From assembly GCF_029946165.1 (NCBI RefSeq), contig NZ_JAQSDZ010000016.1, positions 1 through 64,000 on the forward strand: a stretch of DNA of 64,000 nucleotides, in the 5' to 3' direction. The notes beneath the pieces are model-generated. The model was given only the letters and a program-made list of their open reading frames with translations. It was not told the DNA's origin and ran no database searches. Shown here in pieces: positions 2,802-22,636 of the stretch. Within the stretch, counting starts at the first letter, position 1, and the number at the start of each line of letters is the position of its first letter. The translations under genes were made by a program, and so were the position numbers. Source of the stretch: Methylotenera sp. (GTDB lineage: Bacteria; Pseudomonadota; Gammaproteobacteria; Burkholderiales; Methylophilaceae).

Positions 2802-2831
2802 TTGCATCCAAAAAGCTATGTAACTCGTATT
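2802..2831 (+). promoter_or_regulatory. Putative ECF-sigma promoter (protease gene)
   Basis: TTGCATCC (2802-2809), a 16-nt spacer, then CGTATT (2826-2831). The -35 block and the exact spacing are identical to those of the promoter before the ECF sigma gene at 18677. The predicted transcript start lies about 40 nt upstream of the protease start codon. Assignment to the ECF factor is inferred from four matching sites in the window. Confidence 0.72.
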
Positions 2832-2877
2832 AAAGTTAACCATCCAAAATTAAACTAAGTCATGATTGGGAATTATT

Positions 2878-3900
2878 ATGCCTAGACTCACACCGAGACT
2901 CGTGCTACTTGCAGCTTTATTGGCTTTTACACAAAACGTTTTCGCAATTGACCAACTAAAAGTGCTAAGCGCATTGCAAACAGTAGTGATGGTGCGTGGT
3001 TATAACGACACAGGCGGCTTATCTTACGGGTCTGGTGTTGTTGTTGCTCAAAATAAGGTCATGACAAATTGCCATATTCTTCGCAGCACAAAACAACCTT
3101 GGGTAGCGCGTGGTGAGGATACCTATGACATTATTTCTGTACAAGCAGACAGATGGCATGATTTATGTTTAGTGACAACGGTTAACTTACCATTTAAACC
3201 TGCCAATATCGTTAAGAACCACGATTTGAAACGTGGGCAAGAAATCATCTCTATTGGTCACTCAAATGGCGCGCCTTCACCATTGACTTCAGCGGGCATT
3301 ATTAACGCGAGTTATATTTTTGAAGGTGGCCGTGTCATTAGAAGTAGTGCGGCTTTTCGCATGGGTGCTAGCGGAAGTGGCATTTTCGATACAGAAGGAA
3401 ATCTGCTAGGCATTAACACGTTTAAAACACCGGGTAGAACTGCTTACTTTTATTCGCTACCCATCGAGTGGTTAGCTGACATTGAAAAGCTACCAGTAGA
3501 AACCACATTCCCTATTATAGGCAAAGCATTTTGGGAGGAAGATGACGATAAAAAACCATTCTTTATGCAAATTGCACTTCCCGAAATTAATCAGGATTGG
3601 CCTAAGCTTGCAAAAGTCGCACATAATTGGATTGATATCGATCCTAAAAATTCTGACGCATGGTATGAGTTAGGTAAAGCACAAGAGAATATGGAAAAAA
3701 CCGATGAGGCCAAAGTGTCATATAAAAAATCTGTCGCGCTTGATGCTTCTAATACTGACTCCTTATTCAGATTAGGCGCTATAGCTCAATCCACTGGAGA
3801 TACAGCAACGGTGCGTGATATTAATGTCGCTATTGCCAATATCAGTAAAGATTTGGCTCAAGAATACAGCCAAATGCTAGGTTGCAAGACGGAGTGTTAA
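2878..3900 (+). CDS. Exported trypsin-like serine protease with C-terminal TPR
   Basis: A periplasmic or secreted S1-type protease of 340 residues. A signal peptide (MPRLTPRLVLLAALLAF..., cleavage after VFA near residue 23) precedes the protease domain. The catalytic triad is visible: His66 in MTNCHIL, Asp95 in WHDLCLV and Ser165 in GASGSG. Residues about 245-310 hold TPR-like helices (AWYELGKAQENMEKTDEAK). No PDZ domain follows, so it is not a DegP-type protease. I chose ATG 2878 because it gives a clean signal peptide and has GGGA seven bases upstream; a TTG at 2866 is possible. The gene is monocistronic and carries the same promoter motif as the ECF sigma gene and the lipid operon, suggesting a role in envelope quality control under that sigma factor. 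Substrate unknown. Confidence 0.82.
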   Translation: MPRLTPRLVLLAALLAFTQNVFAIDQLKVLSALQTVVMVRGYNDTGGLSYGSGVVVAQNKVMTNCHILRSTKQPWVARGEDTYDIISVQADRWHDLCLVTTVNLPFKPANIVKNHDLKRGQEIISIGHSNGAPSPLTSAGIINASYIFEGGRVIRSSAAFRMGASGSGIFDTEGNLLGINTFKTPGRTAYFYSLPIEWLADIEKLPVETTFPIIGKAFWEEDDDKKPFFMQIALPEINQDWPKLAKVAHNWIDIDPKNSDAWYELGKAQENMEKTDEAKVSYKKSVALDASNTDSLFRLGAIAQSTGDTATVRDINVAIANISKDLAQEYSQMLGCKTEC

Positions 3901-4092
3901 CTAAACTGACTGAAGCTTTTAAAGTGTTTAGAGGAATTACATTCAAACGCCTATTAATTAAAAACTTTCCTTATAGACAATCTTTCTGCAACTACGTGAT
4001 AACTCAAGATAAATCATTCCTAAAGCACATTTTTATGCGTAAAATAGCGCCCATTCAATTAATTGCAAAAATTTGTGTTAAGGAAGCATATT

Positions 4093-5313
4093 TTGTCATC
4101 TGCAGCTCATCAGGCATCCGTTTTATCTAAACGTGTTCAATCAATCAAAGAATCTCCTACGCTAGCGATTACTGCAAAAGCGGGAAAATACAAAGCTGAA
4201 GGTCGCCCTATTATTGGTTTAGCGGCGGGAGAGCCAGACTTTGATACTCCACAACACATTAAAGATGCGGCAAAAACGGCGATTGATAATGGCTTCACTA
4301 AATACACACCGGTGGCAGGTATTCCAGGCTTGAAAAAAGCGATTGTTAACAAATTCAAAAATGAAAACGGTTTTGACTATGCGTTAAATGAAGTCATTGT
4401 GGGTGTTGGCGGCAAACAAACTATATTTAATTTATGTCTCGCCGTGCTAAATAAAGGTGATGAAGTCATTGTTCCCGCACCTTACTGGGTGTCTTACGCA
4501 GACATTGCCTTAATTGCTGAAGCAACGCCTGTCATTATCGAGTGTGGTATTGAGCAAGGCTTTAAATTATTACCGGCGCAATTAGAAGCGGCAATTACCC
4601 CCAAAACTAAAATCTTCATGATTAACTCACCGTCCAACCCAACTGGCGCGGTTTATTCATTAGAAGAATTGAAAGCTTTGGGCGAAGTGCTACTTAAACA
4701 TCCGCATGTATTAGTAGCAACAGACGATATGTATGAGCATGTTAATTTAACTGGCGACAAGTTTTACAATATTCTAAATGCTACCCCTGCCCTAAAAGAC
4801 CGCTGCATCGTACTTAACGGCGTTTCTAAAGCTTATTCAATGACAGGCTGGCGCATCGGTTATGCTGCAGGTCCTGCTTATATCATTAAAGCGATGGAGA
4901 TTTTACAATCGCAATCTACCAGCAATGCAACCTCCATCTCTCAAGTGGCTGCGCAAGTTGCACTTGAGGGCTCACAGGACTGCATCACGCCAATGGTCAC
5001 TGCATTTAAAGAGCGCCATACTTACGTGGTTAACCGTTTCAATACAATGCCAGGCTTAAGTTGTTTAATGGCTGGCGGCGCTTTTTATGCATTCCCTGAT
5101 GCACGTGGCGCAATTGACAACTTATTCAAAGCTGGAAAAATTAAAGCAGCTACCGATATGGCATTAGCTGAATACCTACTTGAGGAATTTGACGTGGCTG
5201 TGGTGCCAGGTTCAGCCTTTGGTGCTGAAGGTTATTTCCGTATTTCGTTCGCCACTTCTATGGAAAATCTAAGCAATGCGCTAGATAGAATTGAAAAAGC
5301 ACTCAATATTTAA
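4093..5313 (+). CDS. aspC: Aspartate aminotransferase (class I, PLP-dependent)
   Basis: Transfers the amino group between aspartate and 2-oxoglutarate in amino-acid metabolism; a cytosolic fold-type I PLP enzyme of 406 residues. The Schiff-base lysine is Lys246 in LNGVSKAYSMTGWRIGYA. The cofactor-binding asparagine lies in INSPSNPTG (about 178-184) and the substrate arginine in the C-terminal GYFRISFA. The N-terminal part (LSKRVQSIKESPTLAI) fits the AAT-Ib subgroup, which often also acts on prephenate or aromatic substrates. Start: TTG 4093 with AGGAAG seven bases upstream fits best; the frame stays open to an upstream TTG at 4063. The gene stands alone between the protease gene and the tRNA genes. 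Confidence 0.93.
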   Translation: MSSAAHQASVLSKRVQSIKESPTLAITAKAGKYKAEGRPIIGLAAGEPDFDTPQHIKDAAKTAIDNGFTKYTPVAGIPGLKKAIVNKFKNENGFDYALNEVIVGVGGKQTIFNLCLAVLNKGDEVIVPAPYWVSYADIALIAEATPVIIECGIEQGFKLLPAQLEAAITPKTKIFMINSPSNPTGAVYSLEELKALGEVLLKHPHVLVATDDMYEHVNLTGDKFYNILNATPALKDRCIVLNGVSKAYSMTGWRIGYAAGPAYIIKAMEILQSQSTSNATSISQVAAQVALEGSQDCITPMVTAFKERHTYVVNRFNTMPGLSCLMAGGAFYAFPDARGAIDNLFKAGKIKAATDMALAEYLLEEFDVAVVPGSAFGAEGYFRISFATSMENLSNALDRIEKALNI

Positions 5314-5418
5314 AAAAAAGCATTTTGACATTGACCAAGTACCGCTAAGTCATTAATATAGCGGCTTCACAAAATCAACGGTTTGTGAAGAAGTAGAAGT
5401 AGCAAGAAAACCGAATAT

Positions 5419-5494
5419 TCCTCGATAGCTCAGTCGGTAGAGCAACGGACTGTTAATCCGTGTGTCCCTGGTTCGAGCCCAGGTCGAGGAGCCA
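5419..5494 (+). tRNA. tRNA-Asn(GTT), copy 1
   Basis: 76 nt with encoded CCA. The acceptor stem TCCTCGA pairs with TCGAGGA, the D-arm has AGCTCAGTCGGTAGAGC, the anticodon GTT is at 5452-5454, and the T-arm has CTGGTTCGAGCCCAG. Identical in sequence to the second copy 139 bp downstream. Confidence 0.98.
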
Positions 5495-5504
5495 AATATA
5501 TATA

Positions 5505-5533
5505 AAAAAGCACTCATCTCAGGGTGCTTTTTT
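5505..5533 (+). terminator. Rho-independent terminator after tRNA-Asn 1
   Basis: AAAAAGCACTC and GGGTGCTTTTTT form a hairpin with a short loop and a T-run. It lies 10 bp after the first tRNA, so the two tRNAs may be separate transcripts. Confidence 0.75.
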
Positions 5534-5557
5534 ATCGAATAAAAAAACATCGAATAT

Positions 5558-5633
5558 TCCTCGATAGCTCAGTCGGTAGAGCAACGGACTGTTAATCCGT
5601 GTGTCCCTGGTTCGAGCCCAGGTCGAGGAGCCA
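5558..5633 (+). tRNA. tRNA-Asn(GTT), copy 2
   Basis: Exact duplicate of the first tRNA-Asn, including encoded CCA. The flanks also match (CGAATAT before, CCAAATA across the 3' end), so this is a tandem duplication of a 139-bp unit. The accessory-looking J-protein cluster begins about 110 bp downstream. Confidence 0.98.
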
Positions 5634-5641
5634 AATACAAG

Positions 5642-5671
5642 AAAAAGCCCTATAGCAATGTGGGGCTTTTT
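5642..5671 (+). terminator. Rho-independent terminator after tRNA-Asn 2
   Basis: AAAAAGCCC (5642-5650) pairs with GGGCTTTTT (5663-5671); the stem ends in a T-run. Confidence 0.8.
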
Positions 5672-5743
5672 CGTTTTAGCTCTAAATTACTAAGCTACAC
5701 ATACAAATGGCTTTGTTAGCTCATCTAAATTTGGTGGATAAAA

Positions 5744-6025
5744 TTGAAAAATTACTACGAAGTTTTAGGCCTTAGCGCTAATGCGACCTTAGCTGACATA
5801 AAATCCACCTACCGTAAGCTGGCGTCTCAATACCATCCTGATAAAAACTCGGCGAGCGATGCTCCTGCAAAATTTAGACTAGTGCAGGAAGCTTACGAAA
5901 TACTTTCCGATACCGAAAAAAGAAAAACCTACGACGAAAACCGCAGGCGTAGTTTATTGGATAGTCCAATAGACACCGCACATGAAATTTGGCAGTACTA
6001 CATAGATGGAATATTAAAACAATGA
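5744..6025 (+). CDS. Short J-domain protein
   Basis: A 93-residue protein consisting almost entirely of a J domain: YYEVLGLSANATLADIKSTYRKLA (helices I-II), the HPD triad in QYHPDKN, and QEAYEILSDTEKRKTYDE (helices III-IV). It lacks the Gly/Phe linker, zinc fingers and C-terminal substrate domains of DnaJ, so it should recruit and stimulate an Hsp70 for a partner supplied elsewhere. The next gene starts in its stop codon (ATGA overlap), so the partner is probably encoded there. The TTG start has GGTGGA a few bases upstream. The last 20 residues are not part of the J fold and may be a docking tail. Confidence 0.85.
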   Translation: MKNYYEVLGLSANATLADIKSTYRKLASQYHPDKNSASDAPAKFRLVQEAYEILSDTEKRKTYDENRRRSLLDSPIDTAHEIWQYYIDGILKQ

Positions 6026-6513
6026 GAATATCGCGCTACTTTACTGACTTAATGGCTACTTATGTAGCTGATATTAATGATTTTAAAACTGACTCTGGTG
6101 GTGAGGATGTGCTAGCGGAACGCCTTAAAGAAAAACGCACGCAAATACCTGACTTAATGCCTATGATGAAGACTAACCCAGAGATGATGGCGGTTATTTT
6201 TCACAAAAGTGTTGTGATAAAAAAACCAAAAACTGTCATGACTTATATCGATAAAGAGCCTGCTATGTTTCCAGCATGGAATGATATATCCTCCAGTGTT
6301 GAGTTTCAGCCTTGGGCAACCAGTATCATTGATAAGTTAAAAGTTGAAGCTGGTGGTGAGCATTTTTTATTAACTACCGTGATGCTAGAACACCTCTATG
6401 CGCTTTATGAGATTAGTGAAGATGCCATTGAAGAAATGGAAACTGAAGAGTCTGACGACCTTGCTGAGTCTGGCGGCGAATGGTTATCTGAACATGGTTT
6501 CGACAGCCATTAG
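6022..6513 (+). CDS. Unrecognised protein coupled to J-domain protein
   Basis: I do not recognise this 163-residue family. The predicted protein is soluble, with no signal peptide or membrane segment, mixed alpha/beta character and an acidic C-terminus (EDAIEEMETEESDDLAESGGE). The ATG at 6022 overlaps the J-protein stop (ATGA), indicating translational coupling and a likely complex or client relation. An upstream start in the same frame would lie inside the J-protein gene and is less likely. Two further unrecognised genes follow in the same direction. Confidence 0.7.
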   Translation: MRISRYFTDLMATYVADINDFKTDSGGEDVLAERLKEKRTQIPDLMPMMKTNPEMMAVIFHKSVVIKKPKTVMTYIDKEPAMFPAWNDISSSVEFQPWATSIIDKLKVEAGGEHFLLTTVMLEHLYALYEISEDAIEEMETEESDDLAESGGEWLSEHGFDSH

Positions 6514-6554
6514 ATTCACTCACGATAAATTTTAGTCAATACAATAGGATAAAA

Positions 6555-7226
6555 ATGACACATTTAGTCGTTGTAGAAGCAACTAACCTTATTCAGTCAG
6601 GCGACATAGTCAGAGCCGAGGCTTTACTCACCGCCCTAGTTGAAACTGAGGGCGATCATGCTTTGATCGAGGTGCTTGATGATATTCCATCAAAGGATTT
6701 ATTAGCTGTCATTCGTGAATATGACTCTTCTAAACAATCATTATTGAATTTACTAATTACTCCTGAGCAATTTGCACGCGTTGTTGTTTTAGAACGCCTC
6801 TATAAAGATATGTCGCACGAACAACTTCGTGGAATGATGAACGCAGTCATTTTCCGTGAAGATGCTGATGCGAATGAATTTATTGAAGCTATCGCCGAGC
6901 TTGAGTTTGGTTATGAAACATTCGTTGACTACTTATCAGATCGTGCAGAGGAAGTGATAGGTGAAACATTTGCCGCGCTTGAAACTGATGATATCTCACG
7001 CTCAGAAATTAGCGACCATGACTGGAAAGAACTCACATGGTTACTACGTCATGAACATGAAGACATTTATAATATCGTCCTAGTCTTATTAAAAGCCAAA
7101 CTCCAGGAGCGAGTGATCGCTGAAATTACTCTCACTAGTGAAGAAGATGAGGACGAAATCGAAGACAACCCCACTACTGAGGAAAAAGACGTTAAAGATG
7201 ATGAGGAGGAAGATTCTGCAATTTAA
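6555..7226 (+). CDS. Unrecognised acidic alpha-helical protein
   Basis: A 223-residue soluble, strongly acidic protein. Residues 1-130 look like a run of short helical hairpins (SKDLLAVIREYDSSKQSLLN, then LLITPEQFARVVVLERLYKD), loosely reminiscent of the MgtE-N/HEAT-like fold, but I cannot confirm that. The last 35 residues are a disordered Glu/Asp tail (TSEEDEDEIEDNPTTEEKD). Such tails are common in histone-like, chaperone or nucleic-acid-mimic proteins; which applies here is unknown. ATG start with AGGAT upstream, 41 bp after the preceding gene, so probably co-transcribed with the J-domain gene. Confidence 0.65.
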   Translation: MTHLVVVEATNLIQSGDIVRAEALLTALVETEGDHALIEVLDDIPSKDLLAVIREYDSSKQSLLNLLITPEQFARVVVLERLYKDMSHEQLRGMMNAVIFREDADANEFIEAIAELEFGYETFVDYLSDRAEEVIGETFAALETDDISRSEISDHDWKELTWLLRHEHEDIYNIVLVLLKAKLQERVIAEITLTSEEDEDEIEDNPTTEEKDVKDDEEEDSAI

Positions 7227-7269
7227 ACAGAATTTACTCACTCAGCTTATGCATCGATAATAAATTTAT

Positions 7270-8532
7270 ATGGCATCCGCCCAAAAAATACATTCTGTTG
7301 CCGCTTATGACAATGCGCCCTTCTTTGAAAAGGCGCTAAAGTATGCTGTTCAGAACAACGTTATCGATCAAGCTAGATTAGTCGAAATAATCAATGATGC
7401 GGCAACTGGTTCGTTACAAATTGCTGAGTATTTTGATGAATCTATTCATCTGAGAAAAAATCTAGAAACTTCCATGAAGCGCATGGTGAGTCTGGTAAGT
7501 TTATATCTTGAAGATGCGACTGATGGTGAGCTAGATAAAGCCGCACAACTTTTGAAAGATAAACCATTTCGAGCACTCTCTCGTGGTGGATCCCAAATGC
7601 TCAAAGCGCTATACAATTTGCCTGAAGATGAACACTTTGGCTCAATTAGGCTTGAAAACGAGCGTGATTTTCTAAAAAAAGGCTTAAATAAAGAATTGTC
7701 TGTAATTAAATATAGGCAATCGTTTAAAGAATGTGAACACTATAAACACCATATTAATTTAGCTACTTGGTTAGTCAAAAAACTCGGGGCGAGTACCAAG
7801 GAATTAAGCGTGACACATGCTCCTGTGGAACATGTTATTCGTACTTCGATTTTATTTTTAACGTATGGCACAAAAAAAGCTTTGTCAAAAAGAACCAAAT
7901 TTCCTGATGAAACTGTTTTATTTGAGATTTTCAGCTCAATTCGCAGAGAATGGGCACTTCTAGGGGATGTGACACAATCAAACAAGTTCTTAGAAGATGT
8001 GCCAGAACAGTTTCAGATTACTATCAAAACTATCCTCCAAAGCATTCAAAATGAAGATATACCTAAGATAGTTAATGATTCAATTGGCTTAGATTCAGTG
8101 TTACATCATCTCACAGGCAGTAAATATTTCTACATACCGGATCAGTTAAATGAAGTCAGTCGGTTCGACAAAAGGCTTGCAGGAGAATGGGTTGCACTTA
8201 CTGGTGACATTGATACAAGTGCCGATAATGAAGATTTGTTACTTCTCACTTTATTTCTCTGTGTGGCAGCCGGCATAGAGCGTAAAACCAAGCTAAAAGT
8301 CTTCGAAGCTAAAAAAGCGGTTTTAAATATCCGTGAACATGGGCTTTTACAAAACGAAGTGCTTAATCTCATTAAGGCAGCGCCACATGATGATGTAAAG
8401 CAACTCACGTCATTATGGGATGAATTTATCGATGAAGCCGCACCCTACCTACTTGATAGCTCAGATGAAAACTTACATGAAGTGATAGTGTATTTGACCG
8501 AACGATGTAATATACACAAAACAAAGAAATAA
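7270..8532 (+). CDS. Unrecognised helical protein, last gene of the J-protein cluster
   Basis: A 420-residue soluble protein, predicted mainly alpha-helical, with no signal peptide, membrane segment or motif that I recognise. It opens with a segment of about 80 residues (NAPFFEKALKYAVQNNVID, then ESIHLRKNLETSMKRMVSL) and continues with long amphipathic helices; a short Lys-rich end (HKTKK) closes it. It starts 43 bp after the acidic protein gene and ends in a noncoding AT-rich region, so it is probably the end of a four-gene operon with the J-domain protein. It may be the structural or client member of the set, but that is only an inference from position. Confidence 0.62.
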   Translation: MASAQKIHSVAAYDNAPFFEKALKYAVQNNVIDQARLVEIINDAATGSLQIAEYFDESIHLRKNLETSMKRMVSLVSLYLEDATDGELDKAAQLLKDKPFRALSRGGSQMLKALYNLPEDEHFGSIRLENERDFLKKGLNKELSVIKYRQSFKECEHYKHHINLATWLVKKLGASTKELSVTHAPVEHVIRTSILFLTYGTKKALSKRTKFPDETVLFEIFSSIRREWALLGDVTQSNKFLEDVPEQFQITIKTILQSIQNEDIPKIVNDSIGLDSVLHHLTGSKYFYIPDQLNEVSRFDKRLAGEWVALTGDIDTSADNEDLLLLTLFLCVAAGIERKTKLKVFEAKKAVLNIREHGLLQNEVLNLIKAAPHDDVKQLTSLWDEFIDEAAPYLLDSSDENLHEVIVYLTERCNIHKTKK

Positions 8533-8914
8533 TATTGCTAATTCTTGTTTGCTATTTCTAGATTAGTTGGCTTTACACAGCCGTTTAACAGCAAATATAC
8601 TTCTAGTCAATAATAATTTATATTGCACCCTTAAGTTAACCAGAAAACTGACGTCATTAACTTAACAGGGAAAAAATAAAAAATTCGGCGTTTTCGCAAT
8701 TCATCTTAATACTTGGGTTAAACACTTATCACTGACTAGACTAAACGATTGAAAAAGTGAAAAAAGTTGAATGCCTCTTAACACAATAAACAGGTTAATT
8801 GTAGAAAAATTTGTAATAAGATTATTTAACTAACTAGGTTATATTGCTCATCTATCATGTTGTATTGATAAAGATATTCTGCTAAATAACATAGCTTAAC
8901 TGTAGGAAAATTAT
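8533..8914. other. AT-rich intergenic region before first Thr-rich gene
   Basis: No gene seen. Its last 250 bp resemble the region before the second Thr-rich paralog: both contain TTCGGCG, then TTTGTAAT[A/G]AGATTATTTAAC, then a TAGGA ribosome site. It is therefore the diverged left half of the duplicated unit and probably contains the promoter. Confidence 0.6.
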
Positions 8915-13503: not shown

Positions 13504-15021
13504 GTGAATGATTCGATAAAAGTATCTAAAGAAGATTCCCTAACTTCATCAGGCTGGAACTTTGATAATAGCTACACCCGATTAGCCAAAACTTTTTTTG
13601 TTAAGCAGAAGCCCACCCCTGTTAAAGCGCCACAAATCGTTCTTTTCAATCAAGCTTTAGCGATCTCACTGGGATTAAAGGCTGAAACTCTTTTAGGTGA
13701 TGAAGCATGCGCTATTTTTTCTGGCAATAAACTACCACTAGGTGCAGAGCCTATCGCGCAGGCTTATGCAGGACATCAGTTTGGTCACTTAAACATGCTT
13801 GGCGATGGCCGTGCAGTTTTACTCGGCGAGCATATTACGCCCGAAGGTAATCGCTATGATATTCAGCTTAAAGGTGCTGGCGTTACTGCATATTCACGTC
13901 GTGGCGATGGTCGCGCAGCACTTGGTCCAATGCTTAGGGAATATATCATTAGTGAAGCGATACATGCACTGGGAATACCCACTACGCGTAGTTTGGCTGT
14001 GGTCTCCACAGGTGAGCTTGTGTATCGCGAGGGTGCGCTGCCGGGCGCAATTCTAACGCGAATCGCAGCAAGTCACATTCGAGTTGGAACATTTCAGTTT
14101 GCTGTTTCAAATGACGACCCAGAGCTTGTAAAATCGCTTGCCGATTACACATTGGATCGACATTTTCCAAATCTTGTAAACGACGAAAACAAATACTTAT
14201 CGCTGCTCAATGTTGTAATCGACAATCAAGCTAAGCTCATTGCACAGTGGATGCAGGTCGGATTTATTCATGGCGTGATGAATACTGACAACATGTCTAT
14301 TTGTGGTGAAAGCATTGATTTTGGACCGTGTGCGTTCTTGGACAATTACGATCCGGCCACAGTTTTTAGCTCGATTGACCAGCAAGGTCGATACGCTTTT
14401 GGCAACCAGCCACCTATCGCACAATGGAATTTGACGAGATTTGCTGAAACATTGTTGCCGCTGATACATCATGATATAGAAGAGTCAATACGAATTGCAG
14501 AAACCGCACTTAAAGCATTTGCAGATAAATACCAACATAATTGGTTAACTGGCATGCGTGCTAAGTTAGGTTTATTAGCAGAAGAGCCTGACGACCTTGA
14601 GTTGGTAGAAGAACTGCTAAATTCTATGAAAAAATATCGTATGGACTATACCAATACCTTTCGCGACTTAACTTCAAACTTAACTTCTGGCTCAATTTCG
14701 AATTCAAGCTTGAACATGGAAGAATATTCAGACAGACCTGACTTCGTTACATGGCATCATCGATGGATTAACAAGCTATCAAGACAAACTGAAAGTATTG
14801 AAATTGCCAAAACATTAATGTTAAAAACCAATCCAGTAGTCATTCCACGCAATCATCAGGTGGAAGCCGCCTTAAGCGCAACAGAAACAGGTGATTTTAC
14901 CGTGGTAGAAAAGCTTCTTGCAGTATTATCTCAGCCTTATATTGAGGACGCTAGTAACATAAGCTACAGATCGCCCTCGTTGCCGTCCGCAGTGCCTTAC
15001 AAAACATTCTGCGGAACTTAA
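13504..15021 (+). CDS. selO: Protein adenylyltransferase SelO (YdiU family)
   Basis: A pseudokinase-fold enzyme that transfers AMP from ATP to Ser/Thr/Tyr of target proteins and is linked to redox homeostasis. Its 505 residues fit the family. Visible marks are the inverted ATP-binding segment QLKGAGVTAYSRRGDGRAAL (near 125), the metal-binding region GFIHGVMNTDNMSICGESID and DFGPCAFLDNYDP (about 255-285), and the C-terminal Cys in KTFCGT. That Cys sits where eukaryotic SelO carries selenocysteine. It starts with GTG, with AAGGAT upstream. The gene is monocistronic. Confidence 0.95.
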   Translation: MNDSIKVSKEDSLTSSGWNFDNSYTRLAKTFFVKQKPTPVKAPQIVLFNQALAISLGLKAETLLGDEACAIFSGNKLPLGAEPIAQAYAGHQFGHLNMLGDGRAVLLGEHITPEGNRYDIQLKGAGVTAYSRRGDGRAALGPMLREYIISEAIHALGIPTTRSLAVVSTGELVYREGALPGAILTRIAASHIRVGTFQFAVSNDDPELVKSLADYTLDRHFPNLVNDENKYLSLLNVVIDNQAKLIAQWMQVGFIHGVMNTDNMSICGESIDFGPCAFLDNYDPATVFSSIDQQGRYAFGNQPPIAQWNLTRFAETLLPLIHHDIEESIRIAETALKAFADKYQHNWLTGMRAKLGLLAEEPDDLELVEELLNSMKKYRMDYTNTFRDLTSNLTSGSISNSSLNMEEYSDRPDFVTWHHRWINKLSRQTESIEIAKTLMLKTNPVVIPRNHQVEAALSATETGDFTVVEKLLAVLSQPYIEDASNISYRSPSLPSAVPYKTFCGT

Positions 15022-16149: not shown

Positions 16150-16214
16150 ACTTAAGTTTCTAAGTCGCGGATACCGTATACTACGCTCACAAAATCTATT
16201 CTAATGGAATCAAC

Positions 16215-16814
16215 ATGAACGAGCGCATTCAATTATTACTTAAGCAAATGAATGCCCTAGAAGATGAAATGCGCACCGCTCTTAGCGAGCAACAATCCAC
16301 GATGTTTTTTCAAATTAAAGGTAAGCGGGTTGAATTTGAAGAGTCTATTAAAGCAAGACACCGCAAATTTAAAAGGAATTTTTTTCGTTGGTTAGTCACA
16401 GACCGTCCGCAAAACTTAATTACAGGACCTATCATTTATTCGATGATTGTTCCCTTGCTAATCACAGACCTTTTTGTTAGTTTTTACCAATTCACTTGCT
16501 TTCCAATTTATGGCATCAAAAAGGTAAAACGTCGCGATTACATCATGTTTGATCGCCAACAGTTAAGCTATTTAAACTTCATCGAAAAATTCCATTGCAC
16601 ATACTGCGCCTACGGCACGGGCATGGTGGCTTATATCAGTGAAATTATCGCCAGAACTGAGCAATATTTTTGCCCCATTAAGCATGCAAGAAAAATCTTA
16701 AGTACGCATGCACGATACCCTAAGTTTTTAGAATTTGGGGACGCAGAAAACTACGAAGCTAAACTCGAAGAATATAGGCGCGCATTATCACCAGATAACA
16801 TTGATAAAACATAA
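16215..16814 (+). CDS. Conserved membrane-associated protein, unknown function
   Basis: A 199-residue protein. It starts with a helical, charged N-terminus (1-60, likely coiled coil: LLKQMNALEDEMRTALSEQQ). A hydrophobic stretch of about 35 residues follows (IIYSMIVPLLITDLFVSFYQ), long enough for one or two membrane passes. A conserved-looking motif region follows with Cys in FHCTYCAYGTG and YFCPIKHARK, which could bind metal. I recall similar conserved hypothetical proteins in betaproteobacteria but no assigned function. ATG start; single gene between the VF530 gene and ycaO. Confidence 0.68.
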   Translation: MNERIQLLLKQMNALEDEMRTALSEQQSTMFFQIKGKRVEFEESIKARHRKFKRNFFRWLVTDRPQNLITGPIIYSMIVPLLITDLFVSFYQFTCFPIYGIKKVKRRDYIMFDRQQLSYLNFIEKFHCTYCAYGTGMVAYISEIIARTEQYFCPIKHARKILSTHARYPKFLEFGDAENYEAKLEEYRRALSPDNIDKT

Positions 16815-16888
16815 CCAATTTATCGGCTTATTTTCGCTGTTTTAGCTCCGCATGATATTCTGTAGACTTTTAGCTAAGAGCCTTCAAA

Positions 16889-18640
16889 ATGACTGCCAAC
16901 TCAACCACCACAGAAACCTTTATTCCTAGCAAGGATGCCTCACTAGAATCATCCATCCGCACGCTACAAGGCAAGCTGGAGGCACTCGGCATTCAAGTAG
17001 AAGAAAAGTCATGGCTGAATGAGATTGAAGGCATTTGGTCTGTGCATGTGATTGATCGCGACTGCACTCGCCTATTTACTAACGGTAAAGGCGCTTCTCA
17101 ATTAGCGGCTCGTGCAAGTGCATTGGGCGAATATTTCGAGCGTTTAAGCACCAACTATTTTTGGACGCATTTTTACCTAGGCGAAACCATTGTTAATAAA
17201 GAGTTTGTGCATTATCCAAATGAGCAATGGTTCCCCCTCAAGGGTGATAAATGGCCTGCTGGCTTGCTTACACCTGAGCTACAAAAATTCTATAACCCAG
17301 AAGGCACAGCCATTGCCAGCCAACTGATTGACTTAAATTCTGGCAATAAAGAACGTGGCATTTGCGCGATTCCATACAAGCGTTTGCGTGATGACAAAAC
17401 CGTTTTTTTTCCAGTTAACCTAATCGGCAATTTATATGTAAGTAACGGCATGAGCGCCGGTAACACTTTAATGGAAGCTCGCACACAAGCACTGGCAGAA
17501 ATTTTTGAGCGTGACATTAAGTATAAAATCATCCGCGAAGGTATTTGCTTGCCAGATGTACCAGAAGCCGTAATTAACCGCTTTCCGCGCATCGCAAAAG
17601 GTATTAAAGGCTTACGTGACGCTGGTTATGGAATTTTAGTAAAAGACGCCTCATTGGGCGGAAAATACCCAGTGATGAACGTCACGCTACTTCACCCTGA
17701 AGACCAAGGATGTTTTGCCAGCTTTGGCGCTCACCCACGCTTTGAAGTGGCGTTGGAGCGTGCATTGACCGAGTTACTACAAGGCCGCGCCTTAGATAGC
17801 TTAAAAGGCTTTGTCGCACCAGGTTTTGATATGGAAGAAATCGCTGATTCACAAAACTTAGAAATTCACTTTGTAGATTCTAGCGGCGTGATTAGCTGGG
17901 ACTTCTTACGCAGCACGCCAGATTACGAATTTGTCGATTGGAACTTCGGTACTACAACAGAAGAGGACTACAACTGGTGCGTTAACACCATCCATAACAG
18001 CGGCCACGATATGTACATAGCCGACTTTATGCATTTAGGCGTGTATGCTTGCCGCATTTTCGTGCCCGGCATGAGTGAAATCTACCCTGTTGAAGAATTG
18101 GAATGGGAAAACAATACGGTAGGTAACTTAGTGCGCCCTTTTGCCTTGAAACTACAAAATTTAACGCAAGAAGAGTCTGCTGAACTATTAGAAACGTTGC
18201 TGGATTTAGATCTAGCAGATGAACTACCAGTAACTACGCTAATTGGATTATGTGCGGATGCTGGCACCACTTGGGTAGACTTGCGCGCTGGTGAACTTAA
18301 AACCTTAGCCGCTTTAGCCGCAGGCGACACAGACAATATTCTCGATGGTTGCGCTTGGATTGCGCAGTTCAACGAGCTTCCAGCTGCACGCGCTAAAGTT
18401 TACCGCTGTGTTGCCAATTTAGTGCAAATTGAAGAAGAGTTAGAAAATGGCGACACTGCTTTATTTGAAGCCAATCTAACGCTAATGTATGGCAATGAAA
18501 CCTTGGCTCAAGCGCAGCGCTTAGTAAATCAAGCAGAGCAATATTTTGGCTTAGGCAATTTAGGCGCCAATATGGAAGGCAGCAAAATGCATCAACAATT
18601 ATTGGCCGCTTATCGCAAAGTTTGGAAACAGTTAAATTAG
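16889..18640 (+). CDS. ycaO: YcaO-domain protein
   Basis: The 583-residue length closely matches E. coli YcaO. YcaO domains use ATP to activate backbone amides; E. coli YcaO assists RimO in beta-methylthiolation of ribosomal protein S12. ATP/Mg-binding glutamates sit in GKGASQLAARASALGEYFER (near 72-90), EARTQALAEIFER (near 197-209) and ERALTELLQGR (near 290-300). The C-terminal 170 residues hold the extra domain found in E. coli YcaO rather than in RiPP cyclodehydratases. No precursor peptide, dehydrogenase or transporter lies nearby, so a RiPP role is unlikely. Monocistronic, immediately upstream of the ECF sigma locus but with its own reading direction and spacing. Confidence 0.92.
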   Translation: MTANSTTTETFIPSKDASLESSIRTLQGKLEALGIQVEEKSWLNEIEGIWSVHVIDRDCTRLFTNGKGASQLAARASALGEYFERLSTNYFWTHFYLGETIVNKEFVHYPNEQWFPLKGDKWPAGLLTPELQKFYNPEGTAIASQLIDLNSGNKERGICAIPYKRLRDDKTVFFPVNLIGNLYVSNGMSAGNTLMEARTQALAEIFERDIKYKIIREGICLPDVPEAVINRFPRIAKGIKGLRDAGYGILVKDASLGGKYPVMNVTLLHPEDQGCFASFGAHPRFEVALERALTELLQGRALDSLKGFVAPGFDMEEIADSQNLEIHFVDSSGVISWDFLRSTPDYEFVDWNFGTTTEEDYNWCVNTIHNSGHDMYIADFMHLGVYACRIFVPGMSEIYPVEELEWENNTVGNLVRPFALKLQNLTQEESAELLETLLDLDLADELPVTTLIGLCADAGTTWVDLRAGELKTLAALAAGDTDNILDGCAWIAQFNELPAARAKVYRCVANLVQIEEELENGDTALFEANLTLMYGNETLAQAQRLVNQAEQYFGLGNLGANMEGSKMHQQLLAAYRKVWKQLN

Positions 18641-18676
18641 GCATAAATAATAACTTATCGCAATTTTATATAAAAA

Positions 18677-18706
18677 TTGCATCCAAAAACTCTTATGAAG
18701 CGTAAT
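18677..18706 (+). promoter_or_regulatory. Putative autoregulated ECF-sigma promoter
   Basis: TTGCATCC (18677-18684), 16-nt spacer, CGTAAT (18701-18706). It matches the promoters before the protease gene and the lipid operon. The predicted transcript start falls at the beginning of the sigma reading frame, giving a very short leader. Confidence 0.75.
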
Positions 18707-18713
18707 ACTTTAT

Positions 18714-19340
18714 ATGAGAGTTAATTTGTTTAAAAACACCATGGTTGAACTTATGTACGTTACACCTACGCATTTGCCCGACCTTTCGCCGCCATCGGAT
18801 ATGATCACCTTGATTGGCAGAATGGCGAAAAAAGACGAGTCATCTCTTGAAGCTTTTTATGATATGACATTATCAAAAGTGTATGGACTAGCGCTTAAAA
18901 TCACTCGCCGCCATGACTTAGCTGAAGATGTTGTAGGCGACACTTACTGGCAGGTTTGGCATCAAGCCGTCAGGTTTGATATAAACAGAGGCGTGCCAAT
19001 GGCATGGTTAATGCTCATTTGTCGATCACGCGCTTTAGATGCATTACGTAAATTAGACGAAGCTGAATCTCACCCTGAGCCTATTGAGTTAATGGAAGCA
19101 TCTGATTTTTCATGCCCTACGCTTGAGAAAATGCTGACTTTAGAAAAAGATTCTGCGCTACATATTGCTATGGCAAAGCTTACTGCCATTCAAAGACAAT
19201 TAATTGCGCTCGCTTTTTTTAAAGGCTATACACATCAAGAAATTTCTGAACAAACCAACTTACCATTGGGCTCTGTTAAATCCCATATTAAACGTGCGCA
19301 AGCCTCACTAAAAGACGCACTCTCGCATCAGGAGGACTAA
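18714..19340 (+). CDS. ECF RNA polymerase sigma factor (RpoE/ChrR group)
   Basis: A group 4 sigma factor of up to 208 residues. Region 2 spans about 35-105 (LEAFYDMTLSKVYGLALKIT, DLAEDVVGDTYWQVWHQA, PMAWLMLICRSRALDALRK). Region 4 spans about 145-205 (IQRQLIALAFFKGYTHQEIS, LPLGSVKSHIKRAQASLK). The following cupin gene and the lipid operon nearby point to the RpoE-ChrR type that answers singlet oxygen. The start is uncertain: the -10 element ends 7 bp before ATG 18714, so TTG 18726 (GAGAG ahead) or ATG 18741 may be the true start. Positive autoregulation is likely from the matching promoter. Confidence 0.93.
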   Translation: MRVNLFKNTMVELMYVTPTHLPDLSPPSDMITLIGRMAKKDESSLEAFYDMTLSKVYGLALKITRRHDLAEDVVGDTYWQVWHQAVRFDINRGVPMAWLMLICRSRALDALRKLDEAESHPEPIELMEASDFSCPTLEKMLTLEKDSALHIAMAKLTAIQRQLIALAFFKGYTHQEISEQTNLPLGSVKSHIKRAQASLKDALSHQED

Positions 19341-19344
19341 TTTT

Positions 19345-19794
19345 ATGGCTAAAGACAAAAACTTAAGTGCTATAGAGGCATTGGATGCCACTGTTGTTAG
19401 CGCAGTAGCTTCAAGCCTACTACCCACCATTCCTGCACCTGAAGTAGCAAGCAGAATGAAAGAAACCTTATTCAATAGAGTTAAGACTTCTGAAGCTAAT
19501 CAGCGCTTCATGTTTGCCGATCAAGGCGACTGGCACACCATTGCAGAAGGCGTGCAAGTTAAGATATTAAGGCAAGAGTCTGATAGTCGCTCAGCATTGG
19601 TTAAAATGGCGGCGAATAGCTGCTTGCCTGCGCACGAACATCATTTTGATGAAGAAGCTATCGTGTTAGAAGGTGACGTTTGGCTCGAAGACATTTTATG
19701 CGGTATTGGTGACTATCACCTTGCCCAAGCTGGCAGCGCTCATCGCGAGATTCGCTCTGAACATGGCTGTTTATTATTTATTAGAAATGCGTAG
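19345..19794 (+). CDS. ChrR-like cupin protein, putative anti-sigma or sensor
   Basis: A 149-residue partner of the ECF factor, 4 bp downstream, with its ribosome site (AGGAGG) inside the end of the sigma gene. Residues 55-149 form a cupin with ligands in the ChrR pattern H-x-H-x3-E ... H: His97, His99, Glu103 and His133. ChrR of Rhodobacter has an N-terminal zinc anti-sigma domain (H...C-x2-C) that holds the sigma factor. Here the N-terminal 50 residues have no His or Cys and begin near what looks like the ChrR linker (PAPEVASRMKETLFNRV). The protein is thus cupin-only, and how it restrains sigma is unclear. Confidence 0.82.
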   Translation: MAKDKNLSAIEALDATVVSAVASSLLPTIPAPEVASRMKETLFNRVKTSEANQRFMFADQGDWHTIAEGVQVKILRQESDSRSALVKMAANSCLPAHEHHFDEEAIVLEGDVWLEDILCGIGDYHLAQAGSAHREIRSEHGCLLFIRNA

Positions 19795-19830
19795 TCTTTT
19801 TGAGTCGCACACCTAACTCGCCAATCCGCC

Positions 19831-20919
19831 TTGAACAAATATAGCTTAACTTTTATGATGATATTTGGATTTATGGCAACACCTAGTGTTGCTGAAGAAG
19901 CATATTCAGCGCCATTTTGGCTGCCTAGCGGTCATCTGCAGACTATTTACCCAGCAGTAATCACGGCTAAACAACAAGTTAAATATCGTCGTGAGCGCTG
20001 GGAGTTAGATGATGGCGACTTTATGGATGTGGATTGGTTAGATACCGAAAATGACAATGCTAAAGCTATAGATAGTGAAAGCAAACCAACGGTCGTGTTA
20101 TTTCACGGCCTAGAAGGCAGTTCTAAAAGCCATTATGCTTTAGCGTTAATGGCTCACTTGCAAGCCAAAGGTTGGCGCGGCGTGGTGGTTCACTTTCGGG
20201 GATGCTCAGGTGAAAACAATCGTTTACCACGCGCCTATTTTGCTGGAGATAGTGCCGATATAGAAATGGCATTAACTCGCGTTAAAAAAACTGTGGGCAA
20301 TGCACCCGTCTACGCAGTTGGCGTTTCATTAGGTGGCAATGCACTGTTGAAGTGGCTAGGTGAATCAGGTGAACATGCAGCTGAAATTATTCAATCGGCA
20401 GCGGCCGTATCTGCGCCAACTGACCTAGCGGCATGTGGCGTAGCATTAGATAAAGGACTTAATCGCCTGCTTTACACGCCTATGTTTGTTAATAGCATGC
20501 GTCCAAAAGCCCTTGAAAAGGCGCGCCAATTTCCTGGTTTATTGGATGAGAAAAAAATTAAATCAGCTTTGACCATCCGAGAGTTTGATACTTTAGTCAC
20601 GGCAAAATTACATGGGTTTGTTGATGCGGACGACTATTGGGCTAAGAATGCTTCAAAACCTTGGCTACCCTATATAAAAGTTCCAACCTTAATTCTTAAC
20701 GCAAAAAATGACCCATTTATCCCTGCTGAGTCTCTACCCGATCAATCATCCGTATCTAATTCAGTGACATTAGAAGTTACTGAAGAAGGCGGGCATGTTG
20801 GATTTATAAGTCCACCCTTCCCGGGCAATAATAATTGGCTTCCGCAACATATCATTCATTACTTTGAGTCTTTGCAGGTAAAAAGTGCGCTTACTGGTCA
20901 AATTACAGATAACCAGTAA
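19831..20919 (+). CDS. YheT-family alpha/beta hydrolase
   Basis: A 362-residue hydrolase of the YheT (EMB8/ABHD1-3) group, marked by PFWLPSGHLQTIYPA near 28-42. The likely triad is Ser in VGVSLGGNA (nucleophile elbow), Asp in NAKNDPFIP and His in EEGGHVGFI. Relatives act on esters, and the human ABHD3 branch on oxidised phospholipids. The start (TTG 19831) yields a hydrophobic N-terminus with an A-x-A-like end (TPSVAEE), so this copy may be exported; an ATG at 19855 is an alternative. It lies 36 bp after the cupin gene and is probably in the sigma operon. That would fit turnover of oxidised lipid, but this is an inference. Confidence 0.85.
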   Translation: MNKYSLTFMMIFGFMATPSVAEEAYSAPFWLPSGHLQTIYPAVITAKQQVKYRRERWELDDGDFMDVDWLDTENDNAKAIDSESKPTVVLFHGLEGSSKSHYALALMAHLQAKGWRGVVVHFRGCSGENNRLPRAYFAGDSADIEMALTRVKKTVGNAPVYAVGVSLGGNALLKWLGESGEHAAEIIQSAAAVSAPTDLAACGVALDKGLNRLLYTPMFVNSMRPKALEKARQFPGLLDEKKIKSALTIREFDTLVTAKLHGFVDADDYWAKNASKPWLPYIKVPTLILNAKNDPFIPAESLPDQSSVSNSVTLEVTEEGGHVGFISPPFPGNNNWLPQHIIHYFESLQVKSALTGQITDNQ

Positions 20920-20927
20920 GCGCACTT
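20883..20927. terminator. Bidirectional terminator overlapping a stop codon
   Basis: A perfect 16-bp stem, AAGTGCGCTTACTGGT (20883-20898) with its complement at 20912-20927. It contains the TAA of the hydrolase gene (20917-20919) and is followed by AAAATT. It separates two convergent operons and can serve both strands. Confidence 0.8.
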
Positions 20928-20949
20928 AAAATTAAATCCAGAATATTAA

Positions 20950-21480
20950 CTATTGAGCCGATAAAGTGGTTGGTGGAACTGCCACGCCCTTAGTCGTCTC
21001 AATTTCACGATACATGGGTGCTAACTTAGCTAACAAATTGTTTTGCGCAGAAAATGGCACGTTATGCTTATCCATTGCAAATTGAAACTGCTCCACAAGC
21101 GCATTAAAAGCCTCACGATTTACTTTCATATTTGCGTGTGATGAGGTCATATCGCGACCTGAATACCTACAGCCACCATTCATTAGCTCGCACATTTGTT
21201 CAACCAACATCGCTTTAATAAAGTCTTTTTTTGGATTGTCAAAAAATGGTTTTGTGCGCGGATCTGCAATTAAACCAATCATAAAATCATCCATAATATT
21301 AACTAAACCTTCTTTACCGCCAAATGCTTTAAAGGTTTCGGTGCCTTCCATAGGCATATTACCTAAGTTTGGGCTAGCCACAGGCGCTGTGGCCTTCTCG
21401 GCGCTCATTGCAGGGATTGCTTGCATGAGTGCTGTACTAGCAAATAGCGCGACTAGTAAGGTTTTTATTTTAAAATTCAT
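20950..21480 (-). CDS. Exported truncated hemoglobin (group 1-like)
   Basis: A 176-residue protein. A signal peptide (MNFKIKTLLVALFASTALMQ..., cleavage near AMSA) precedes a globin domain: FKAFGGKEGLVNIMDDFM (A-B helices), DPRTKPFF (C region), FIKAMLVEQMCELMNGGCRY (E helix), DMTSSHANMKVNREAFNALV (proximal His region) and a C-terminal helix. Truncated globins bind O2, NO or related ligands; export to the periplasm is less common. Of three consecutive ATGs, the last (21480) has the best spacing to AAGGA. It lies 25 bp downstream of the DUF3034 gene, in one operon under an ECF-type promoter. It may detoxify reactive species at the membrane. Confidence 0.85.
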   Translation of the reverse strand: MNFKIKTLLVALFASTALMQAIPAMSAEKATAPVASPNLGNMPMEGTETFKAFGGKEGLVNIMDDFMIGLIADPRTKPFFDNPKKDFIKAMLVEQMCELMNGGCRYSGRDMTSSHANMKVNREAFNALVEQFQFAMDKHNVPFSAQNNLLAKLAPMYREIETTKGVAVPPTTLSAQ

Positions 21481-21505
21481 CATCATTCCTTGTTCAATCG
21501 TTAGT

Positions 21506-22471
21506 TTAGAAGCCAATCTGAGCAGATAGGTAAATGGACTCTTGTTTACCGTAATTTGCACCCACCGCATTAACCGTAGCAATATTTCCTAATTTGACAT
21601 AAGCCGCTGTGAGTGAAATATTCTTAGATGGTGTGTAGGCTACAAAAACATCAAATGCATCATCTTCTTTAAGGTCAACAGCACCACCGACGGTATTGTC
21701 TAAGTTGTGTGGTTTAGTACGATACTCAGCACCAATGGCAACATTTTTAGCCACTAAGTAAGCGGCTGAAAGTTCAAGTTCAGGGCTGTAACTATCGTGC
21801 TTATTTCCGCCAAATCCTAAAAGTCCAAATTGGTTAGCTTTAGTCATGCGCACAGTACCGTTTAACAAGAGATTTTTATCTAACAACAACTTAGTTGCTG
21901 CTAAGTAGAAATCCACACCATGATCTTTTTTAGCGCCTATCACGCCGCCAGTTACAAAATCACCATCATGATTCTTTTTGTATTGCACACCAACTGCCAA
22001 TTGAGGAATCCAGTTATCTGCATCTAATACGGCCTCACCTAAAACACGCACTTTTGCTCCAATAATAGTTTGTTCAATCTCATCACGACCAATCGCATCG
22101 GCCCCAAGCCCTGCTTTAACCTTGCCTCTTAAGTCACTCAAATCGAATGATTGCTGCGCAACTGAAAGCTCAAATCGATCATAAAAGCCTAAGGTCACAC
22201 CGTAGCTATCTAATTGAAAGTCGTTTGTTTTTGCATAGGTGTAATGTACATTTCCGCCTATTTCATTGTTTGTACCATAGCCGCCTATAACAGCCCAAGG
22301 CGTCAATCCGCCACCTGCAGCACCTTCAACTTGCGATACTCCGCCAGTCAAAAGAAGTTTATTGCTATAATTTTCCGCATGAGTAATTGATGAACTAAAG
22401 CTCACCCCTAGCGTAATGGTCGAAGCTACTGTAGCCAGTAGCCGCTTTTTGAAGCAATTTTGCTTGTTCAT
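21506..22471 (-). CDS. DUF3034-family outer-membrane protein
   Basis: A 321-residue exported beta-rich protein. The signal peptide ends near SITHA (about 32). The rest alternates short amphipathic strands and glycine-rich turns, as in an outer-membrane barrel, and ends with a C-terminal aromatic residue (SAQIGF), the usual insertion signal. The segment LTGGVSQVEGAAGGGLTPWA near the N-terminus of the mature protein is the mark by which I recognise DUF3034. Function unknown. Start ATG with GGAGAG nine bases upstream. It is transcribed divergently from the lipid operon from its own TTGAATCT-N16-CGTA promoter and is followed by the exported globin, suggesting an envelope role in the same stress response. 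Confidence 0.83.
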   Translation of the reverse strand: MNKQNCFKKRLLATVASTITLGVSFSSSITHAENYSNKLLLTGGVSQVEGAAGGGLTPWAVIGGYGTNNEIGGNVHYTYAKTNDFQLDSYGVTLGFYDRFELSVAQQSFDLSDLRGKVKAGLGADAIGRDEIEQTIIGAKVRVLGEAVLDADNWIPQLAVGVQYKKNHDGDFVTGGVIGAKKDHGVDFYLAATKLLLDKNLLLNGTVRMTKANQFGLLGFGGNKHDSYSPELELSAAYLVAKNVAIGAEYRTKPHNLDNTVGGAVDLKEDDAFDVFVAYTPSKNISLTAAYVKLGNIATVNAVGANYGKQESIYLSAQIGF

Positions 22472-22544
22472 ATACTCTCCATTAAATTAAAAAATCATGA
22501 TCGAGATAGCCTATCGAGTCGGGCAGAGTTGATCACTTAATTGA

Positions 22545-22574
22545 TATACGTTAATAAACTAGATTTAGATTCAA
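22545..22574 (-). promoter_or_regulatory. Putative ECF-sigma promoter (DUF3034-globin)
   Basis: Read on the minus strand: TTGAATCT (22574-22567), 16-nt spacer, CGTATA (22550-22545). One base differs from the -35 block of the lipid-operon promoter; the spacing is identical. It gives a leader of about 65 nt before the DUF3034 start. Confidence 0.68.
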
Positions 22575-22606
22575 AAAAATATAGTTAGATTAATAAGTAA
22601 AATTAT

Positions 22607-22636
22607 TTGCATCTAGAAATAGATATACAGCGTATA
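22607..22636 (+). promoter_or_regulatory. Putative ECF-sigma promoter (lipid operon)
   Basis: TTGCATCT (22607-22614), 16-nt spacer, CGTATA (22631-22636). It is divergent from the DUF3034 promoter, with the two -35 blocks 32 bp apart. It would leave a leader of about 135 nt before the first operon gene; nothing structured is obvious in that leader. Confidence 0.72.

What the first reader, a model, noticed from the sequence alone, without database searches (positions are those of the whole stretch)
2802..22636. Four identically spaced ECF promoters define a regulon
TTGCATCC (2802), TTGCATCC (18677), TTGCATCT (22607) and, on the minus strand, TTGAATCT (22574) each stand exactly 16 nt before CGTA. 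They precede a protease gene, the sigma gene itself, a nine-gene lipid operon and a DUF3034-globin operon. Other intergenic regions I checked by eye hold no match. As I recall, the RpoE/ChrR group uses a TGATC-like -35 and a CGTA-like -10, which fits.
Basis: partly seen in the sequence, partly recalled or inferred. Interest (0 to 1): 0.82.

Follow-up and report, generated by a model that had tools for sequence, protein, structure and literature searches.

The report
Stress regulon with cupin-only anti-sigma partner
Four matching on-switches clustered around one stress-response gene in a methylotrophic bacterium are most likely real and read by that gene's protein, which belongs to a widespread group related to, but distinct from, the well-known singlet-oxygen alarm system.

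Summary
In the window's genome the core motif TG[CA]ATC[CT]-N16-CGTA has 7 hits: these four, between genes, and three inside cheA, slyD and fusA.

Comparison supports promoters of this sigma. The lipid-operon site is present in 4 of 4 congeners with the sigma and 0 of 18 without. Upstream of 78 homologous sigma genes of other genera, an unbiased count ranks ATCC-N16-CGTA first (45 of 78).

The group assignment fails. ECF11 RpoE/ChrR uses TGATCC-N16-CGTA; this group uses TGCATCC-N15-GCGTA. Its partners are cupin-only (0 of 83 cupin ORFs with the zinc motif HxxxCxxC), and the sigma lies outside the ECF11 clade. Yet the lipid operon carries the families of UfaD, UfaO and UfaM (furan fatty acids), core targets of classical RpoE/ChrR.

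Best reading: a cupin-gated ECF system parallel to RpoE-ChrR with a small, local envelope/lipid stress regulon. The protease site is kept in only 2 of 4 sister species. No transcript or binding data exist here.

The parts
2802..2829 (+). promoter-like site TTGCATCC-N16-CGTA before the protease gene
   Evidence: same site in G003, absent in G013 and G027
2878..3900 (+). trypsin-like protease with TPR repeats (ORF listed from TTG 2866)
18677..18704 (+). promoter-like site TTGCATCC-N16-CGTA before the sigma gene
   Evidence: kept in G003, G013, G027
18741..19340 (+). ECF sigma factor (ORF listed from ATG 18714)
19345..19794 (+). 149-aa Cupin_7 (ChrR-like) protein, presumed anti-sigma factor, no zinc motif
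19831..20919 (+). alpha/beta hydrolase directly after the cupin gene; may share its transcript
   Evidence: order kept in L170 and L171
22547..22574 (-). promoter-like site TTGAATCT-N16-CGTA before DUF3034-globin
   Evidence: in-register CTGCATCT sites in G003 and G027
21506..22471 (-). DUF3034 protein
20950..21582 (-). bacterial-type globin (ORF as listed)
22607..22634 (+). promoter-like site TTGCATCT-N16-CGTA before the lipid operon
22778..23842 (+). CMAS-like methyltransferase, first gene of the lipid operon
23849..24391 (+). DUF2878
24388..25167 (+). DUF1295
25170..25805 (+). DUF6134
25841..26398 (+). lipocalin
26420..27397 (+). fatty acid desaturase
27417..28670 (+). flavin amine-oxidase family protein, the family of UfaD
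   Evidence: family of RSP1091/UfaD
28671..29447 (+). DUF1365 protein, the family of UfaO
   Evidence: UfaO holds DUF1365 per PMC7380195
29447..30718 (+). CMAS / cyclopropane synthase family, the family of UfaM
   Evidence: UfaM/cfaS

Best explanation
The four sites are promoters of the ECF sigma factor encoded at 18741-19340. Shown by sequence comparison: in related genomes that carry the sigma, the sigma gene, the lipid operon and DUF3034-globin have the site, and distant homologs of the sigma have the same dyad upstream of themselves. Inferred: in unstressed cells the co-encoded 149-aa cupin protein holds the sigma inactive through its short N-terminal helices, without ChrR's zinc-bound anti-sigma domain; a signal felt at the cupin metal site, plausibly an oxidised lipid or another product of membrane damage, frees the sigma; the sigma then transcribes its own gene pair and a small envelope/lipid defence set (lipid operon with the UfaD/UfaO/UfaM families, DUF3034-globin, in some species the protease, and in three sister species a bufferin-type bufAB operon). 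It works like RpoE-ChrR but belongs to a different ECF clade with its own -35 element.
For: Only 4 matches in the window. Core motif in the four sister genomes: 33 hits against 17 for the backward control; 17 lie between genes, before sigma (4), lipid operon (4), DUF3034 (3), bufAB (3), protease (2) and one small G013 ORF (1), 14 lie in coding genes, 2 were not examined. Lipid site in 4 of 4 congeners with the sigma, 0 of 18 without. DUF3034 sites of G000 and G003/G027 align in register while the -35 changes. 78 sigma homologs: ATCC-N16-CGTA commonest dyad, 45 of 78; ATC[CT]-N16/17-CGTA near 52 of 78 against 34 of 2558 background windows. Whole loci: 128 sites against 36 control. DUF3034 site in 4 of 4 Zoogloea loci. 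Cupin gene beside the sigma in 78 of 80 loci. Cupin model best matches ChrR of the RpoE-ChrR complex.
Against: No expression or binding data. The four sister species are near kin, so their counts are not independent. Three genomes of other families with a distant cupin-type sigma (G041, G052, G058) have the lipid gene but no site before it, so lipid control is not shown outside this clade. Protease site missing in G013 and G027. DUF3034 site missing in 3 of 7 non-Methylotenera loci. 26 of 78 sigma genes show no such dyad within 420 bp. With one mismatch allowed the genome scan is near background, 74 against 62. The anti-sigma role of the cupin protein is untested.
Confidence: 0.78

Rival explanations
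1. It is an ordinary ECF11 RpoE-ChrR pair that senses singlet oxygen through a zinc anti-sigma domain.
For: Same -10 (CGTA) and 16-nt spacing as ECF11 promoters; ChrR-like cupin partner; UfaD/UfaO/UfaM families among the targets.
Against: -35 is TGCATCC, TGATCC-N16-CGTA at 1 of 78; 0 of 83 cupin ORFs with HxxxCxxC; ChrR models far under their cut-offs, 30 of 300 and 22.7 of 124.5 bits; sigma outside the ECF11 rows in the tree.
Confidence: 0.07
2. Some sites, above all the TTGAATCT one before DUF3034, are read by another ECF of the cell, for example the one beside the bufferin paralog operon.
For: Sites of the TTG[AC]ATCT form stand before bufferin paralog genes in 4 of 13 loci (G004, G017, G021, G031), in three of which an ECF gene with its own ORF lies next to them; none of these genomes has the cupin-type sigma. 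G000 has such an ECF on contig 18.
Against: 9 of 13 such loci, G000's among them, lack the site. Orthologous DUF3034 sites switch between the A and C forms within the sister group, and Zoogloea DUF3034 has the TGCATCC form beside its own cupin-type sigma.
Confidence: 0.12
3. The cupin protein is not an anti-sigma factor but an enzyme or a co-activator that merely travels with the sigma gene.
For: No zinc domain; after ChrR the model matches many plain cupins, KdgF among them; only two N-terminal helices are predicted.
Against: Beside the sigma in 78 of 80 loci; an N-terminal segment (P..P.......L..RLL.R) is kept across the 35 aligned relatives as a majority pattern; the best structural match is ChrR in complex with RpoE.
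Confidence: 0.2
4. The four sites are chance matches.
For: The pattern was fitted to the sites; single genomes hold a few chance matches elsewhere.
Against: 0.037 expected in the window; conservation in sister species and in other genera.
Confidence: 0.01

Closest known systems
ECF11 RpoE-ChrR (Rhodobacter sphaeroides; Pseudomonas syringae PSPTO_1043; Shewanella RpoE2)
   Same: ECF sigma beside a cupin protein; self-promoter; CGTA -10 at the same spacing; furan-fatty-acid gene families among the targets.
   Different: -35 TGCATCC instead of TGATCC; no zinc anti-sigma domain; separate sigma clade; DUF3034-globin, DUF4331 and bufAB as targets were not in the passages I read.
SigK-RskA type ECF pairs (ECF19-like; group name taken from papers, no classification run)
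   Same: Nearest solved sigma by sequence is SigK, 82 bits against 78 for RpoE; in congeners G017 and G022, and apparently G004, an RskA-type pair stands directly before the same lipid operon.
   Different: Membrane anti-sigma instead of a soluble cupin; separate clade; the dyad stands before only 3 of 12 such sigma genes.
PDB 3o14, deposited as 'Anti-ECFsigma factor, ChrR'
   Same: A 223-residue cupin protein, near the size of the longer partners found here (weak match, E 0.011).
   Different: The window's protein has one cupin and two predicted N-terminal helices; I saw no functional data for 3o14.
Bufferin (MNIO/DUF692) operons with their own sigma/anti-sigma genes
   Same: Bufferin operons can be linked to ECF sigma genes (PMC12452194 passages); sister species have bufAB with this motif.
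   Different: In the sister species the bufAB operon lies far from the cupin-type sigma; the window's genome lacks that ortholog.

Membership tests
ECF11 (RpoE-ChrR) | sigma falls in the ECF11 clade | tested here: not met
   97-row tree: 6 ECF11 rows apart from 81 cupin-type and 10 RskA-type rows (branch 99/98); long branches among the ECF11 rows, bootstrap not fully settled
ECF11 (RpoE-ChrR) | anti-sigma factor with zinc domain (H-X3-C-X2-C) | tested here: not met
   0 of 83 cupin ORFs; residues 1-60 of the window protein hold no His or Cys; NCBIfam ChrR models far under cut-off
ECF11 (RpoE-ChrR) | cupin-like domain with His/His/Glu/His metal ligands | tested here: met
   H97, H99, E103/E104 and H133 invariant or nearly so in 35 relatives; Pfam Cupin_7
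ECF11 (RpoE-ChrR) | promoter TGATCC-N16-CGTA | tested here: not met
   -10 and spacing agree, -35 does not: TGATCC-N16-CGTA 1 of 78, GCATCC-N16-CGTA 33 of 78; control zinc-ChrR loci show TGATC[CT] at 4 of 5
ECF11 (RpoE-ChrR) | core regulon with ufaM/ufaD/ufaO family genes | tested here: met
   families present in the operon behind the 22607 site; family level only, no direct comparison with the Rhodobacter proteins; phrB not looked for
ECF11 (RpoE-ChrR) | activation by singlet oxygen | not testable with these tools
   needs cultures
SigK-RskA (ECF19-like) | membrane anti-sigma RskA encoded beside the sigma | tested here: not met
   next gene encodes a cupin protein; RskA-type rows form a separate group
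SigK-RskA (ECF19-like) | sigma closest to SigK | tested here: inconclusive
   SigK 82 bits, RpoE 78 bits; NCBIfam SigK model 129.5 bits against a cut-off of 226

The most novel reading that the evidence does not exclude
A regulator swap with a kept promoter code. Within one genus the same lipid (furan-fatty-acid type) operon, DUF3034-globin pair and bufferin genes would be wired through nearly the same promoter, TG[CA]ATC[CT]-N16-CGTA, to two different ECF systems in different species: a cytoplasmic cupin-only pair (G000, G003, G013, G027) or a membrane RskA pair (G004, G017, G022); at E 1e-20 no congener examined holds both. The cupin-only pair would be a zinc-free way of sensing the same membrane damage, and the operon's lipid product could itself be part of the signal.
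Probability: 0.3. Interest if true: 0.75.

Novelty: new variant of a known kind. Interest (0 to 1): 0.55.

Why it matters
How ChrR senses singlet oxygen is still open: its zinc domain, its cupin domain and furan fatty acids are all implicated (PMC6852236 and PMC6432622, passages). A family that keeps the cupin, and here also the furan-fatty-acid gene families, but has no zinc domain is a natural experiment that separates these parts. It also supplies a promoter code (TGCATCC-N15-GCGTA) that makes regulons predictable in methylotrophs, Zoogloea and several Burkholderiales, with DUF4331 proteins (site at 14 of 22), DUF3034-globin and bufferin genes as candidate stress functions.

Tried and rejected
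Rejected: ECF11 membership (defining features tested and not met). Rejected: chance. Kept as a rival: a second ECF reading the TTGAATCT sites. A one-mismatch genome scan gave 74 hits against 62 for the control in four genomes and served only to find recurrent candidates; of those looked at several were coding, and it led to the bufAB operon. Viral contigs gave no relative of the sigma. NCBIfam named neither DUF3034 nor the globin. Whether the 2021 ECF re-classification already names this group could not be checked: that paper is not held. Searches listed no paper that I recognised as treating a cupin-only ECF pair or this promoter; for most listed papers only titles and abstract starts were seen. 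The bufferin paralog operons with a neighbouring ECF were judged a separate system.

Rows dropped or capped: one search scored 27 of 30 protease loci (3 too short; the 30 are those given loci out of 39 genomes with matches) and 26 of 29 lipid loci (G004, G024, G032 have short upstream; one search scanned what they hold and found no site). Of the 26, 4 are congeners with the sigma, 18 congeners without, 4 from other families. In one search the bufB ortholog of G022 starts 300 bases into its contig, so its promoter is not held and it is not counted. One search dropped one row (L026). One search kept the best 80 of 409 relatives; one search left out the two Methylotenera loci. In one search, 2 of 33 hits (both on G027 contig 18) had no locus; one of them carries the letters of the fusA site seen in the other genomes.
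Full report
OBSERVATION. Base composition predicts 0.037 matches in the window and 1.7 in the genome. The genome holds seven: the four here and one each inside cheA, slyD and fusA. Counts alone do not mark genomes that have the sigma: across 61 related genomes 42 have at least one match, mostly 0-5 each with or without the sigma. Because the pattern was taken from the sites, I looked for evidence that does not depend on it.

GENES. Pfam and NCBIfam give a trypsin-like protease with TPR repeats; an ECF sigma factor; a 149-residue Cupin_7 (ChrR-like) protein; an alpha/beta hydrolase; a DUF3034-globin pair; and a nine-gene operon (CMAS-like, DUF2878, DUF1295, DUF6134, lipocalin, desaturase, flavin amine oxidase, DUF1365, CMAS). 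The last three are the families of UfaD, UfaO and UfaM, which make furan fatty acids in Rhodobacter sphaeroides (PMC7380195, passages) and belong to the core RpoE-ChrR regulon (PMC6852236 and PMC5507510, passages). The link is at family level only.

SISTER GENOMES. At E 1e-20 the cupin-type sigma is in 4 of 37 genomes of the genus (G000, G003, G013, G027) and, at 43-52% identity, in G041, G052 and G058 of other families. In the four sisters the core motif TG[CA]ATC[CT]-N16-CGTA has 33 hits against 17 for the backward control. Of the 33, 17 lie between genes, 14 inside coding genes and 2 were not examined (the G013 lipid site falls in an upward extension of the lipid gene's own frame and is counted as between genes). 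The 17 precede the sigma gene (4), lipid operon (4), DUF3034-globin (3), a bufferin-type bufAB operon (3), the protease (2) and one small G013 ORF (1). The lipid gene occurs in many congeners: its site scores 11-12 of 12 in 4 of 4 with the sigma and at most 10 in 18 of 18 without. Against a wider claim, the lipid gene in G041, G052 and G058, which have a distant cupin-type sigma, has no site either. The bufB orthologs show the site in 3 of 3 genomes with the sigma and 0 of 2 without; G000 lacks that ortholog and has only a paralog at 41%. DUF3034 sites of G000 and G003/G027 align in register while the -35 differs (TTGAATCT, CTGCATCT), which argues for one reader of both forms. The protease site exists in G000 and G003, not in G013 or G027, and in 0 of 23 scored genomes without the sigma. 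The four sisters are near kin, so these counts are not independent events.

OTHER GENERA. The search for related loci kept the best 80 of 409 relatives, among them Methyloversatilis, Methylomonas, Zoogloea, Rubrivivax, Aquabacterium and Nitrosomonas. Upstream of the 78 non-Methylotenera sigma genes I counted every pair of 4-mers at spacings 14-19. The commonest is ATCC-N16-CGTA, 45 of 78; GCATCC-N16-CGTA is at 33 and TGATCC-N16-CGTA at 1. ATC[CT]-N16/17-CGTA is found within 420 bp of 52 of 78, against 34 of 2558 background windows; the 48 N16 sites give the consensus TGCATCC-N15-GCGTA, with G before CGTA in 44. Over whole loci there are 128 sites against 36 for the letter-reversed control. Recurrent targets are DUF4331 genes (14 of 22) and DUF3034 (4 of 4 Zoogloea loci, 0 of 3 others).

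NOT ECF11. The known RpoE-ChrR promoter is TGATCC-N16-CGTA (PMC5507510, PMC4336711, passages). A control search found zinc-type ChrR in 4 of 143 genomes of the class, five loci; four show TGATC[CT]-N16-CGTA, one of them (L272) about 0.7 kb ahead of the sigma ORF. Of 83 cupin ORFs beside the new sigma genes none has HxxxCxxC; 78 of 80 loci have such an ORF, of median length 279, long enough for two cupins, while the window's has one. In a 97-row tree the cupin-type (99/93), RskA-type (99/94) and ECF11 (99/98) sigmas each lie on one side of a branch; the tool warned of long branches and of a bootstrap not fully settled. By sequence the nearest solved sigmas are SigK (82 bits) and RpoE (78 bits).

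PARTNER PROTEIN. The AlphaFold2 model (35-sequence alignment, mean pLDDT 86.3, pTM 0.62) has two N-terminal helices (15-24, 32-51) and a cupin barrel. Its best PDB match is ChrR in complex with RpoE (2q1z, E 2.2e-8, TM 0.62, rmsd 6.5), followed by many plain cupins. ChrR's anti-sigma domain has four helices, three around zinc (PMC6432622, passages); here residues 1-60 hold no His or Cys. The cupin ligand positions are nearly invariant. I infer a zinc-free anti-sigma factor with the cupin as sensor; nothing here shows binding.

A POSSIBLE SWAP. In G017 and G022 the same lipid operon follows directly on an RskA-type sigma/anti-sigma pair, as it appears to in G004, where pair and operon sit on two contigs. 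These three lack the cupin type and the four cupin-type genomes lack the RskA type at E 1e-20; G004, G017 and G022 are 79-89% complete. G031 keeps only a decayed rskA-like stretch there. Sites of the same form precede the RskA-type sigma in G017 (and in G004 with 15 nt), DUF3034 in G017, and bufferin paralog genes in G004, G017, G021 and G031, 4 of 13 examined. Only 3 of 12 RskA-type sigma genes in all have the dyad, and bufferin paralog operons can have an ECF gene of their own beside them, so this reading is open.

SCOPE. In G000 all between-gene exact matches are the four reported, within 20 kb of each other. With one mismatch allowed, four genomes give 74 hits against 62 for the control, so a wider regulon is neither shown nor excluded.

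LITERATURE. Searches listed nothing that I recognised as a cupin-only ECF pair or this promoter. The main ECF re-classification paper is not held, so the clade may already have a number. For every paper cited I saw passages only.

Noticed in passing
L251, L252, L259 (G003, G027, G013): A bufferin-type operon (Cys-rich small protein plus MNIO/DUF692 enzyme) carries the same promoter motif in three sister species; the window's genome lacks this ortholog.
   Followed up: partly
L060, L302 (G000 contig 18); L331-L333: A second bufferin operon lies beside its own ECF gene; in G004, G017, G021 and G031 a TTG[AC]ATCT-type site precedes its first gene, in 9 of 13 loci not.
   Followed up: partly
L328 (G031), about 5958-6635: A decayed rskA-like stretch without a sigma gene stands before the lipid operon.
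   Followed up: partly
window 16889-18640: A YcaO gene stands directly before the sigma gene, also in L170, L171 and L265.
   Followed up: no
L200, L217, L219, L232 and others: DUF4331 genes recur beside this sigma in other genera, with the motif before 14 of 22.
   Followed up: partly
window 33254-35140; 13504-15021; 114-647: A PQQ-type dehydrogenase, a SelO adenylyltransferase and an IS200-like transposase ORF beside uvrB.
   Followed up: no
L250 (G013), site near 1480-1507 on the minus strand: A between-gene match before a small ORF found only in G013 among the four sisters.
   Followed up: no
L171/L170 DUF3034 sites: The sites are nearly palindromic (CTGCATC...GATGCAG).
   Followed up: no
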